Both the position numbers and the translations under genes were made by a program. The notes below the pieces were generated by a model, which was not told the DNA's origin, ran no database searches, and saw only the letters and a program-made list of their open reading frames with translations. Of a stretch of 64,000 nucleotides of DNA, positions 7,765-63,546 are shown in pieces (position 1 is the first letter of the stretch; every line of letters begins with the position of its first letter). The DNA comes from Flavisolibacter ginsengisoli DSM 18119 (GTDB lineage Bacteria; Bacteroidota; Bacteroidia; Chitinophagales; Chitinophagaceae): assembly GCF_900129295.1 (NCBI RefSeq), contig NZ_FQUU01000005.1:171200-235199 (forward strand), given 5' to 3'.

Positions 7765-7910
7765 GCTACAAGTTAATAAACCTTAAGCATTTGTGATTTT
7801 GCATGACCAGGCCCTGCCATAATTGGTGATCATATTGGCCCGAAGTTGGAAGTAGGATAAAAAGCGACTATGGATGTCGCCTCATTATTTAATCATCATA
7901 AATGTATTTT

Positions 7911-8183
7911 ATGAAAAAGTGGATGTATGTCTTGAGTATGGTCTTTGTTTTCAGTTGTGCTTCTGCAGGTTTTAATGGGCTGCATGCACAGGAGCACAAA
8001 ACAGTACAAAAGAGTAAGAAAGGCAAGTATGCATTGATTGGTGCGGCAGCAGGTGCGGGCACAGGTGCCATTGTCAGTAAAAAGAAAGGCAAAGGTGCAT
8101 TGATAGGCGGAGCCGTAGGTGCCGGAGCCGGGTATCTCTATGGACGTCATAAGGATAAAAAATACAGGAAGGCACATTCCTAA
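7911..8183 (+). CDS. Secreted glycine-zipper protein
   Basis: About 90 residues: a signal peptide (VLSMVFVFSCASAGFNGLHA), a Lys-rich stretch, then two glycine-zipper repeats (ALIGAAAGAGTGAIV and ALIGGAVGAGAGYLYG), each preceded by KKGK. This matches the YMGG-like Gly-zipper group, thought to insert in or associate with the outer membrane. I prefer the ATG at 7911 (MKKWMYV) over 7902 because it gives a standard signal peptide. A shared hairpin follows. Confidence 0.8.
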   Translation: MKKWMYVLSMVFVFSCASAGFNGLHAQEHKTVQKSKKGKYALIGAAAGAGTGAIVSKKKGKGALIGGAVGAGAGYLYGRHKDKKYRKAHS

Positions 8184-8193
8184 AGACTATTAA

Positions 8194-8224
8194 ATACAAA
8201 GGCCTTCCGAAGAAGGCCTTGTAT
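8194..8224. terminator. Hairpin terminator with UUCG tetraloop on the minus-strand transcript
   Basis: Arms AAGGCCTTC (8199-8207) and GAAGGCCTT (8212-8220) form a perfect 9-bp stem, extended by ATAC/GTAT. Read on the minus strand the loop is c(UUCG)g, an exceptionally stable tetraloop, followed by a T-rich stretch. It lies between the convergent glycine-zipper gene and the 43-residue ORF on the minus strand. Confidence 0.75.
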
Positions 8225-8244
8225 GAACCTAAAGTACAGCAGCT

Positions 8245-8376
8245 CTAACCAGCAAAAGCCACTGTTAGTATAACCATCATCAAGATCAGTGTGGTAGCCC
8301 AGATGAAAAAGCCAATGCAATTAATAACCAGGCTTACAATAGGATTTACTTTGTAGATGTGAAGTAGTGTTTTCAT
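8245..8376 (-). CDS. 43-residue membrane protein (paralogue of 29513-29644)
   Basis: An ATG at 8376 opens a 43-codon frame ending in TAG at 8245. It encodes MKTLLHIYKVNP, a hydrophobic stretch, then VILTVAFAG. Two features suggest it is real. The protein at 29513-29644 has exactly the same length and aligns without gaps with about 14 identities of 43 (MKxL, Y8, N11, V14, L16 and a matching tail). A UUCG-loop hairpin lies just after its stop. One or two membrane passes are likely. I know no family for it. Confidence 0.6.
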   Translation of the reverse strand: MKTLLHIYKVNPIVSLVINCIGFFIWATTLILMMVILTVAFAG

Positions 8377-8846
8377 AGGTCAGCTTAATAGGGTTAAAAC
8401 GTTAGTCAGCAATTACAATCTGAAAGTAGCCTGCCAGATCGGTAACAAAAAGCAAATCGAAGAAAATCATTCACGCTTACAAACAAATCCTAAGTGAATC
8501 AACGTGAAAAAAGTTCTGCCTATACGTATAATGCCCAGTTTAGGCAATGTTTACAGTAATTCCACTTAGTACAACCCAATTCAGGTGTTTATTAAATATT
8601 ATAGTAAACAGCAACGGGGATGCCTGTATGTAGTCCCACTTCTAGCTTACCTAAGTTTTCATTGAGCATTGCCTGTTGAATTTATTCGCATCTACCTGAG
8701 AAAAGACCAGATTCCTCTCCCTGTAACCCCATTCAAATTCAATACGCACCTTGCCTTTCTATTTCCGGATCATAAAAAATCAGCATTCTAATTTGTATCT
8801 TTCCCGGCTATAATTAGCATCAAAAGAATTATAGCAGGAAAAGAGC
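8377..8846. other. Intergenic region, 470 bases, no gene seen
   Basis: The stretch lies between the divergent 43-residue ORF and the T9SS protein gene. I see no ORF with coding character and no strong inverted repeat. It should hold the promoters of both genes, but no complete TTG/TAnnTTTG pair could be placed. Confidence 0.5.
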
Positions 8847-29153: not shown

Positions 29154-29512
29154 GAGCAGTAGTTCTGTTATTTGATCCTTACCTAAAGTTCCTACTTTAT
29201 ATAAAGCAAAGCATTCAGATTATAAAATGTACTGACTTATAATCTACATAGCCTTGGCTTTACCCGTTAATATAATTATGAAAATTATTCAAATATGTTA
29301 CTGGCAAGCGGGGTCTAAACCCGGTATAAAAACAGCTGTTTTTTACCTTTTAGTAAATAACTGTCTGGGTAACTAGTAACAGCCCCTTCCCCGTTCCGGA
29401 ATACCACGAGGTAAATGTTTGTGACTCTGCATGTTTCTTTTCTATTTGCTTTCTTTTCATCATGGGCCACTGTAAATTGTTGGAAGAAAACACCACGCTT
29501 AAACTAAATCCT
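29154..29512. other. Intergenic region, 359 bases, no gene seen
   Basis: The spacer between the divergent barrel gene and the 43-residue ORF has no ORF with coding character. It holds a perfect 16-base palindrome, AAAAACAGCTGTTTTT (29328-29343), which could be a short hairpin or a regulator site. Confidence 0.45.
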
Positions 29513-29644
29513 ATGAAACACCTGGTCAATCTTTATCAAACCAACCGCCTGGTAGCCCTGCTGCTTGACGGCATCGCCCTAATTGTTTGTTCCCTGGCAC
29601 TCATTTTCACGCTTACTATCATTGCGGTGGCTTGTGCATTATAG
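29513..29644 (+). CDS. 43-residue membrane protein (paralogue of 8245-8376)
   Basis: An ATG at 29513 opens a 43-codon frame, MKHLVNLYQTNR, then a continuous hydrophobic region to TIIAVACAL. The ungapped match in length and pattern with the protein at 8245-8376 (MKxL, Tyr8, Asn11, Val14, Leu16, conserved end) is the main evidence that both are expressed. The frame is open back to 29462, but the homologous part begins at 29513. Function is unknown; at most two membrane helices fit. Confidence 0.62.
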   Translation: MKHLVNLYQTNRLVALLLDGIALIVCSLALIFTLTIIAVACAL

Positions 29645-29761: not shown

Positions 29762-29803
29762 AAGGTATAGATACTCCGTGCCCGCACGGAGTATCTATAC
29801 CTT
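29762..29803. repeat. Perfect 20-bp inverted repeat with 2-base loop
   Basis: The left arm AAGGTATAGATACTCCGTGC (29762-29781) and right arm GCACGGAGTATCTATACCTT (29784-29803) are exact complements around CC. No T tract follows directly. The edges CTATACCTTAGGTAG and, 20 bases on, CTATGCCTTAGGTATAGG are further near-repeats. It may be a terminator, a REP-like element, or a cruciform-forming site. Confidence 0.8.
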
Positions 29804-61461: not shown

Positions 61462-63546
61462 CTAATGACCAATATTCTCCAGGTTCTTTATTGCTTTTTC
61501 TAAATTGATTCCTTTCCCGAGCACTCCTTTAAAAATATCGCCCTGCTCTTTTAGCCTTCCTACTGCGTTTCCGATATGAAAATCGGTGTTTCGCAGACCT
61601 TTTTTCACCTCCTCCCAGTGCAGCGGCATGGATACAGGGGCACCTGGCTTGGGGCGAAGTGAATACGGTGCAGCTACAGTTGCCTGTGGCCTGTTTTGCA
61701 GGAAATCCAGGTAAATGCAGCCCTTTCGATTGGCAGTTTTTCGCTCAATAGAAGTAAAGTCAGGTATTTCGGCATGCACGATCTTCATCAGGCTCCTTCC
61801 AAATTCTTTCGATGCTTCATAGCTGTATTTGCCGCCAAATGGTATATAAATGTGCAGCCCGGTAGAGCCTGAGGTCTTGGGCCAGGAAGGAACTTTAATA
61901 TCGTCCAGGAGCGTTTTCACTACCTGCGCCGCCTGGATCACCTGTTCAAAATCGTTCTTGTCAGGATCAAGGTCTATAATGCACCAATCCGGATTATCAG
62001 GCGTATTCTTTTTACTGTGCCAGGGATTGATCTCTATGCAGCCCAGGGAAGCCATGTACAAAAGACTGGCCTCGTTAGTGCACACCAGGAACTCTTTTTC
62101 CCTGTTATCGGCATAGCTGAAATATGGAAAAGTCTCTATCCATTCCGGTGCCTTGCCCTTCACATCTTTCTGGTAAAAGCTTTCCCCTTCAATGCCGTGC
62201 GGGTGGCGGTTGAGCGTATGCGGCTTGTCCTTCAGATAGGGCAACATATACGGCGCCACCTGGAAGTAATAGTTGATCATGTCCCTCTTGCTTACTTCCT
62301 TTTTATACCCCTTGGTGGCTTTTGGCCAATAGATCTTACTCAGGTTCGTAAAGCGCAGTTCATGTCCCCCCACTATGCGGGTTTGTGATTCTTCCTTGGG
62401 ATTTAACAGCGTTTTGCGCTCTTTTTTAGGAGGTGCTGTCAGGATCTTCTGGGTAGCCATCTTCGAGTCTTTCACCACTTCGGTAGTCTTTGCCGGGATC
62501 TCCCTTACCACTTTAGAAGGTTTTTTATCCTCCCTCAGGCCCTTGAATGAAGGTTGCCTGAAGGCCCCGTCGCGGGTCAGTTCCCGGTACGAAATTTCCG
62601 CGACCAGCCTGGGCTTCACCCATGTAACTTCGGCTTTTGGAGGGTTAGGTCGAAAGCGGGAAGGTTTGTTGTATTCAGGTTCTGTATCAAACTGCGACTT
62701 ACTGGTCTCAAAAGGTTTTAGCTTTTTGATGATCAGTTCCTGCATCTTTTTATTGAAGCCCGTTCCTACAGGCGTAACGAAATTAAACTTGCCTCCTTCC
62801 ATGATTCCCAGCAAAAGGGCGCTGAAAAGCTTATTGGTCCCTTCATTCTTTGTATAGCCACCAATCACAAGTTCCTGGCGCTTCTCTGTTTTTATCTTCA
62901 GCCAATCCTTACTCCGGGCGCCTGGTACATATACCGATCCTTTTTTCTTGGCCATTACCCCTTCCAGGTGCATCTGGTTAGCCTCTTTAAAGGCCTCTTC
63001 ACCCGTGGCTGACAGGCTTTCACTCAACCTGACTGCCGGAAAACCAGGCATAATAGATTTCAATAGTTGCCTGCGTTCTTCCATGGGCAGGTCCAGCAGT
63101 GAGCGCCCCTCCAGCCACAACAGGTCAAAAGCATAATACACCAGGTGACCGTCCGCTTCGCTGCGCCATAGCTGCAGATCAGAGAAGTCAGGGAGACCCT
63201 GGTCGTTCAGTACCAGTATCTCCCCATCCACCAATGCATTGATGCCCCACTGGCCCATAGTATCATAGATTGGGTAGAATTTCTCATTAAAGGATTTATT
63301 ATTACGTGAACGCAAATCCACATTTCCATTTTCCAGGTAGGCCAGTGCCCGGTAGCCATCCCATTTCATTTCATACACCCATTCTTCATCTTCAACGGGT
63401 TGTGTTACCAGGGTGGCAAGCATTGGTTCCAGGTCTTTCGGCATGGGGGCGGATTTTCCTTTCTTCCATATCAATTCCGCTGTTTTACTGAGTTTCAGGG
63501 CTGTTTTTGGCATCTTTTCCACCTTATGTTTGACTGTACTATTCAA
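61462..63546 (-). CDS. ligD: DNA ligase D (ligase-polymerase form, no phosphoesterase domain)
   Basis: The 694-residue enzyme has an ATP-dependent ligase domain (about 38-345; Lys61 in YEMKWDGYRAL is the adenylated residue) and a polymerase domain (about 395-690; IDLDPDKNDF carries the catalytic Asp pair, SGSTGLHIYIPFGG follows). The N-terminal 3'-phosphoesterase domain of many LigD proteins is absent: only about 37 residues precede the ligase part. LigD joins broken DNA ends together with Ku; no ku gene lies in the window. Confidence 0.92.
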   Translation of the reverse strand: MNSTVKHKVEKMPKTALKLSKTAELIWKKGKSAPMPKDLEPMLATLVTQPVEDEEWVYEMKWDGYRALAYLENGNVDLRSRNNKSFNEKFYPIYDTMGQWGINALVDGEILVLNDQGLPDFSDLQLWRSEADGHLVYYAFDLLWLEGRSLLDLPMEERRQLLKSIMPGFPAVRLSESLSATGEEAFKEANQMHLEGVMAKKKGSVYVPGARSKDWLKIKTEKRQELVIGGYTKNEGTNKLFSALLLGIMEGGKFNFVTPVGTGFNKKMQELIIKKLKPFETSKSQFDTEPEYNKPSRFRPNPPKAEVTWVKPRLVAEISYRELTRDGAFRQPSFKGLREDKKPSKVVREIPAKTTEVVKDSKMATQKILTAPPKKERKTLLNPKEESQTRIVGGHELRFTNLSKIYWPKATKGYKKEVSKRDMINYYFQVAPYMLPYLKDKPHTLNRHPHGIEGESFYQKDVKGKAPEWIETFPYFSYADNREKEFLVCTNEASLLYMASLGCIEINPWHSKKNTPDNPDWCIIDLDPDKNDFEQVIQAAQVVKTLLDDIKVPSWPKTSGSTGLHIYIPFGGKYSYEASKEFGRSLMKIVHAEIPDFTSIERKTANRKGCIYLDFLQNRPQATVAAPYSLRPKPGAPVSMPLHWEEVKKGLRNTDFHIGNAVGRLKEQGDIFKGVLGKGINLEKAIKNLENIGH

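What the first reader, a model, noticed from the sequence alone, without database searches (positions are those of the whole stretch)
8245..8376. Unannotated 43-residue membrane protein with a paralogue 21 kb away
Two separate intergenic ORFs (8245-8376 minus, 29513-29644 plus) encode proteins of exactly 43 residues that align without gaps: shared MKxL start, Tyr8, Asn11, Val14, Leu16 and tail, about 14 identities. Chance ORFs would not match like this. They look like members of a small membrane protein family that gene callers miss.
Basis: partly seen in the sequence, partly recalled or inferred. Interest (0 to 1): 0.7.

Follow-up and report, generated by a model that had tools for sequence, protein, structure and literature searches.

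The report
Twin 43-residue membrane proteins of Flavisolibacter
Two short genes 21 kb apart in a bacterium, likely a Flavisolibacter, encode two distant members of one 43-residue protein family that has no name in the libraries searched; the proteins are predicted to span the cell membrane once and would likely tune a larger membrane protein.

Summary
Both 43-codon ORFs are at the stated places and share 14 identities without a gap. Among 3065 equal-length pairs of small ORFs in the window this pair scores 66, the next best 15. A profile search found 61 proteins, 53 of them exactly 43 residues long. A bridge protein on a Flavisolibacter contig resembles both window proteins. Codon changes among the three loci fit selection on the protein.

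New here: all three genes carry a shared element of about 36 bases, starting 82-107 bases before the start codon. It is identical in 21 of 36 columns, against at most 18 in 600 control triples. Its pattern, with up to three mismatches, occurs at no other place in 18 genus genomes. Neighbouring genes are not shared.

The protein is predicted to be one membrane helix with a charged N-terminus. My best guess, by inference, is a small modulator of a larger membrane protein, working like AcrZ. It is a new member of a known kind.

The parts
8245..8376 (-). Gene A: 43-residue predicted single-pass membrane protein (P0001)
   Evidence: Translation; homologues; codon pattern; model
29513..29644 (+). 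Gene B: 43-residue paralogue (P0002)
   Evidence: Translation; homologues; bridge; profile-profile
8446..8483 (-). Shared upstream element of gene A (promoter-like; TTTG, 19 bases, TCGATTTG)
29418..29455 (+). Shared upstream element of gene B (promoter-like; TTTG, 19 bases, TCTATTTG)
8402..8470 (-). Short upstream ORF (22 codons and stop) that begins inside the element of gene A; coding status unknown
29431..29475 (+). Short upstream ORF (14 codons and stop) that begins inside the element of gene B; coding status unknown
8199..8220 (-). Terminator-like hairpin after gene A, likely shared with the convergent glycine-zipper gene 7902-8183
   Evidence: 2 terminator-like sites found in 7900-8700, mean 0.6 in shuffles

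Best explanation
The two ORFs encode two distant paralogues of one 43-residue protein family that are predicted to cross the inner membrane once, N-terminus likely inside, and would likely act by packing against a larger membrane protein and tuning it, much as AcrZ does with AcrB. Shown here: the family exists, its length is nearly fixed, its codon changes fit selection on the protein, the loci share no neighbouring gene, and both genes share one upstream element whose pattern was found at no other place in the genus genomes searched. Predicted: a short helix 2-10, then a helix 12-42 that holds the membrane span. Inferred: that each gene is its own transcription unit, that the element is a promoter or a regulator's site that puts both paralogues under the same control, and that the product works by contact with a partner in the membrane. 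The partner is unknown.
For: Family: 61 database proteins, 53 exactly 43 aa. Selection: differences at codon positions 1/2/3 are 18/6/26 (A against bridge), 23/10/28 (A against B) and 23/9/27 (B against bridge); NG86 dN and dS 0.54 and 2.58, 0.55 and 1.49 for the last two. Topology: K/R lie only within residues 2-12 in the 55 rows examined (55 of 63; the 8 rows not 43 aa long were left out), no K/R/D/E after residue 15 in 53 of 55, net charge +1 to +3. AlphaFold2: helices 2-10 and 12-42, pLDDT about 97 for residues 21-40. No shared neighbours between the three loci. Shared element: 21 of 36 columns identical in all three loci, 600 control triples reach at most 18; three sites in 18 genomes, none for the reversed pattern. 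AcrZ as a model: a 49-residue protein whose proline bend matters for binding and whose bent shape, rather than specific residues, is recognised (passages of PMC7267776).
Against: No partner is encoded next to the genes in all loci and none could be named. Conservation shows no single face on the helix (permutation p 0.99), nor does hydrophobicity (p 0.74 for residues 13-42), which speaks against a simple one-sided interface. The proline at 12 is not general: gene B has arginine there. Sixteen of 18 genus genomes give no match, so whatever it does is dispensable in much of the genus, though several of those genomes are incomplete. No expression, translation or localisation data were available.
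Confidence: 0.42

Rival explanations
1. Type I toxin: a small hydrophobic peptide that damages the membrane when made and is held in check by an RNA.
For: Right size and hydrophobicity (GRAVY 1.62-1.66), two copies in one genome, patchy presence in the genus, short ORFs upstream, and TimP as a precedent for an inner-membrane toxin repressed by a small RNA (abstract and outline of PMC7667032).
Against: No promoter-like motif on the antisense strand shared by the three loci: one in the bridge locus, none in A or B within the gene and 200 bases upstream. The leaders do not fold better than shuffles in a consistent way (z -1.27, +1.48, -1.16). No Rfam match. No hit for tested members in plasmids, phages or viral contigs. 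No PADLOC match for four members. None of this excludes an RNA of unknown family.
Confidence: 0.17
2. Stress-induced membrane peptide without a fixed protein partner, acting on the lipid bilayer and the proton motive force, like YohP.
For: No conserved face on the helix, no shared neighbours, a shared upstream element; YohP changes membrane composition and potential (abstract and outline of PMC12719787).
Against: Residue identity is held more tightly than a bulk lipid effect would seem to need: M1, K2, Y8 and A40 invariant in 55 rows, V39 99% and I31 96% by weight.
Confidence: 0.22
3. Chance ORFs in intergenic DNA, or one real gene and one look-alike.
For: Plain BLASTP finds no link between the two peptides, and gene B was found in one genome and four database clusters only.
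Against:: bridge protein, 61 relatives, nearly fixed length, codon pattern, shared upstream element.
Confidence: 0.02

Closest known systems
AcrZ (E. coli, 49 aa)
   Same: One short hydrophobic helix; a proline near the start of the membrane helix in gene A and in 83% of rows by weight
   Different: No sequence link was found (no Pfam or NCBIfam family above its cut-off for four members), and no direct comparison with AcrZ was run; partner unknown; gene B lacks the proline. What is said of AcrZ rests on passages of PMC7267776
YohP (E. coli, 27 aa)
   Same: Tiny membrane protein without an enzyme domain
   Different: Much shorter; no sequence comparison was made; abstract and outline only (PMC12719787)
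TimP and other type I toxins
   Same: Small, hydrophobic, predicted in the inner membrane
   Different: No antisense promoter shared by the loci and no known RNA family; abstract and outline only (PMC7667032)
Genus-specific small protein families of the global smORF catalogue
   Same: The catalogue paper reports that 52,550,829 of 96,721,815 families with three or more members are genus-specific, and that only about 8% of families of that size have a Pfam domain (passages of PMC11364881)
   Different: Whether this family is in that catalogue was not checked; two diverged paralogues with a shared upstream element go beyond a bare catalogue entry

Membership tests
Single-pass small membrane protein | About 50 residues or fewer | tested here: met
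   53 of 61 hits are 43 aa; the other eight are 39-66 aa
Single-pass small membrane protein | One hydrophobic helix long enough to span a membrane | tested here: met
   Predicted helix 12-42; GRAVY 1.62-1.66. Prediction only; no dedicated topology program was run
Single-pass small membrane protein | Found in the membrane fraction | not testable with these tools
   Needs fractionation
Coding gene under selection | Third codon positions change most, second least | tested here: met
   Three pairs of loci; only three loci had DNA, and NG86 could not give dS for A against the bridge
Type I toxin-antitoxin | Antisense or trans RNA against the toxin leader | tested here: inconclusive
   No shared antisense promoter-like motif, no Rfam match; an RNA of unknown family would be missed
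Type I toxin-antitoxin | Toxic on expression | not testable with these tools
   Needs an expression test
Known Pfam, NCBIfam, PADLOC or PHROGs family | Match above a curated cut-off or with a significant E-value | tested here: not met
   Four members scanned: Pfam and PADLOC none; NCBIfam best 10.7 bits against a cut-off of 200; PHROGs best E 0.008, partial and of unknown function
AcrZ-like modulator | Binds a larger membrane protein | not testable with these tools
   No partner prediction was possible
Bacteroidota housekeeping promoter (TTTG / TANNTTTG) | -33 and -7 boxes | tested here: inconclusive
   TTTG in A and B, TTGG in the bridge; the -7 box fits 5 of 6 in A and B and 4 of 6 in the bridge, each time with C in place of the A (consensus from passages of PMC6847099 and PMC7366714)

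The most novel reading that the evidence does not exclude
A duplicated pair of tiny membrane regulators, unique to part of one bacterial genus, in which the proteins have diverged to 33% identity to serve different membrane partners while a dedicated upstream switch, perhaps with its own translated leader peptide, has been kept and ties both to one signal.
Probability: 0.2. Interest if true: 0.55.

Novelty: new member of a known kind. Interest (0 to 1): 0.36.

Why it matters
A pair of 43-residue ORFs too weakly alike for BLASTP is shown to be one family by a bridge sequence and by 61 database relatives, and the conserved upstream element is a second sign, independent of the protein, that both are genes. 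If the element proves to be a dedicated regulator's site, the two paralogues would be a handle on a small regulon in a little-studied genus. Small genus-specific proteins of this sort are very common and mostly unexplained, so the result is useful rather than startling.

Tried and rejected
Searches of 195 family genomes with the single peptides gave, outside the window's own genome, only weak hits (best E 0.004 and 0.003), many inside long ORFs or with stops. A profile over 394 family genomes and a larger one over 393 relatives gave no full-length hit outside the genus; the best outside was E 0.002, residues 1-26 only. In these two searches at most 18 first-look candidates per genome were scored, and the weak partial hits were not examined one by one. 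A hit in G209 (E 0.003) lies in another frame of a long ORF, and one in G196 (E 0.22) lies antisense to a long ORF; both were dropped after reading the loci.

A first scan of named genomes with the mixed profile found nothing; the second found the one bridge locus. Shared gene order between the window and the bridge contig was looked for: only one gene is common (a ligase D by my reading; no family search was run on it), 53 kb from gene A in the window and 1.4 kb from the bridge gene, so I do not call it synteny.

Helix-face tests of conservation, hydrophobicity and volume gave nothing. RNA folding of the leaders gave nothing consistent. The PDB profile search gave one chance-level row (E 2.8). 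No fold search was run, since a lone helix would match very many structures. A control that weakens the pairwise case for the upstream element: among 1371 pairs of real upstream regions of the window the A-B pair is first with 27 of 36, but the next two have 26. The case rests on the three-way agreement, where one of 600 control triples reached 18, one 15 and the rest 14 or fewer; the one with 18 was not examined. The element pattern was written from the three sites themselves, so finding those three is by construction; only the absence of other sites is informative.

Papers: a search for Flavisolibacter with 'small protein' gave 0 papers. A wider one gave 433 papers with any two of five terms, of which 8 were listed, none of them holding the word Flavisolibacter, so it settles nothing. 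Both cover the open library only. Other paper searches were used as listings; the outline of PMC10903887 was seen and not used.

Full report
What was checked. Both ORFs exist at the stated coordinates, 43 codons each with ATG and stop. They align without gaps with 14 identities. The pair is far above anything else in the window: 3065 equal-length pairs of small ORFs give 66 for this pair and 15 for the next. Segment-preserving shuffles reach the score once in 100,000. Plain BLASTP of the two peptides alone sees nothing.

The family. Searches with each peptide alone found 6 and 4 database proteins. A genus search with the A-type profile found a further copy in genome G204, the bridge P0013. It is 53% identical to gene A and 35% to gene B, with BLASTP E 1e-8 to gene B. 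The A-type and B-type profiles match at E 7.6e-7, probability 92%. A profile of nine sequences found 61 proteins among 63 candidates, 53 of them exactly 43 residues long. Three carry the organism name Flavisolibacter. The genus name for the window itself is therefore an inference from G204 being placed in the same genus. In a tree of 55 rows, gene B and P0010 stand apart from all the rest on a long branch (100/100), and gene A lies in a group of nine (100/97); most inner forks are unresolved, as expected for 43 columns.

Distribution. In 18 genomes of the genus, 2 match (1 of 13 among the nearly complete ones), and only the window's genome has two copies. None was found in viral contigs with a profile, nor in plasmids or phages with the bridge protein. 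The sampled genomes are one per species and drawn from a larger group, so absence is not proved.

Coding. Between the three loci with DNA, changes fall 18/6/26 (A-bridge), 23/10/28 (A-B) and 23/9/27 (B-bridge) on codon positions 1/2/3. NG86 gives dN 0.54 and dS 2.58 for A-B, and 0.55 and 1.49 for B-bridge; for A-bridge NG86 gives no dS, and YN00 gives 0.39 and 1.21. YN00 gave no value for the other two pairs. The database cluster of gene B (P0009) starts 11 codons upstream at TTG, but the ATG preceded by CCT in all three loci, and the nearly fixed length, favour the 43-residue form.

Structure. AlphaFold2 on 63 sequences gives a short helix 2-10 and a long helix 12-42, mean pLDDT 83.9, about 97 for residues 21-40 and 58 for residues 1-10. 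Positive residues lie only within positions 2-12 in the 55 rows examined, and 53 of 55 have no K, R, D or E after residue 15. By the positive-inside rule (recalled) the N-terminus is likely inside. Neither conservation nor hydrophobicity concentrates on one helix face.

Gene setting. Gene A lies between a glycine-zipper gene and a gene with a type IX secretion signal domain; gene B between an outer-membrane barrel gene and a CDGSH iron-sulphur gene; the bridge gene between a Cys/Met-metabolism enzyme and an FAD/2Fe-2S oxidoreductase. No neighbour is shared. Gene A and the bridge gene have a hairpin just downstream; the scan reports the bridge's hairpin as a terminator on the opposite strand only, and gene B has no terminator-like site directly after it. 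That each gene is its own transcription unit is an inference.

Upstream element. All three genes have an element of about 36 bases that begins (first base of TTTG or TTGG) 107, 95 and 82 bases before the start codon. Pairwise identities are 27 (A-B), 25 (A-bridge) and 26 (B-bridge) of 36, reached by 0, 4 and 0 of 1000 shuffles. Against real upstream regions the A-B pair is first of 1371, but only by one base. The three-way agreement is the strong evidence: 21 of 36 columns identical, while 600 control triples give at most 18, and 15 or fewer in 599. The pattern with up to three mismatches occurs at these three sites only in 18 genomes, and never in reversed form. In A and B it can be read as TTTG, 19 bases, TCNATTTG, which resembles the Bacteroidota promoter TTTG/TANNTTTG (passages) but lacks the A. 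It can also be read as the start of a short ORF of 22, 14 and 12 codons. The conserved block begins about 13 bases before that ATG, which favours a DNA or promoter element over a peptide. In the A-B pair the element (27 of 36, 75%) is better kept than the coding sequence (68 of 129 bases, 53%), though the element is the best stretch by choice and the coding sequence is taken whole.

Mechanism. I commit to a small membrane modulator that works like AcrZ: expressed from its own unit, inserted as one helix, and packing against a larger membrane protein. AcrZ is recognised by its bent shape rather than by specific residues (passages of PMC7267776), so a missing conserved face does not exclude this. 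The partner, the signal and the effect are unknown. A type I toxin and a lipid-acting stress peptide remain possible.

Known or new. Four members gave no match above a cut-off in Pfam or NCBIfam, none in PADLOC, and only weak partial PHROGs rows. Relatives are already called as hypothetical proteins, so the claim that callers miss them does not hold in general. Genus-specific families are more than half of the families with three or more members in the global catalogue (passages of PMC11364881). It is thus an unnamed member of a known kind, with a shared control element as the most interesting part.

Noticed in passing
8402-8470 (-), 29431-29475 (+), L127 2297-2335 (+): A short ORF starts inside the shared upstream element at all three loci (22, 14 and 12 codons; first residues MIFFDLL, MFLFYLL, MIFFVLL) and ends 25-37 bases before the main start codon.
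   Followed up: partly
29764-29801: A strong palindrome with repeated CCTTAGGTA words around it lies about 120 bases after gene B (sequence); not examined.
   Followed up: no
61471-63507 (-) and L127 3927-6056: A gene 68% identical in protein to one close to the bridge gene, a ligase D by my reading (no family search was run on it); the only gene found to be shared by the window and the 11 kb bridge contig.
   Followed up: partly
29462-29644 (+): Gene B's frame is open further upstream: an ATG 51 bases before gives a 60-residue form, and the database cluster P0009 uses a TTG start (54 aa).
   Followed up: partly
database protein P0008: A relative with four residues missing in the middle of the membrane helix, 39 aa; real variant or assembly slip unknown.
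   Followed up: no
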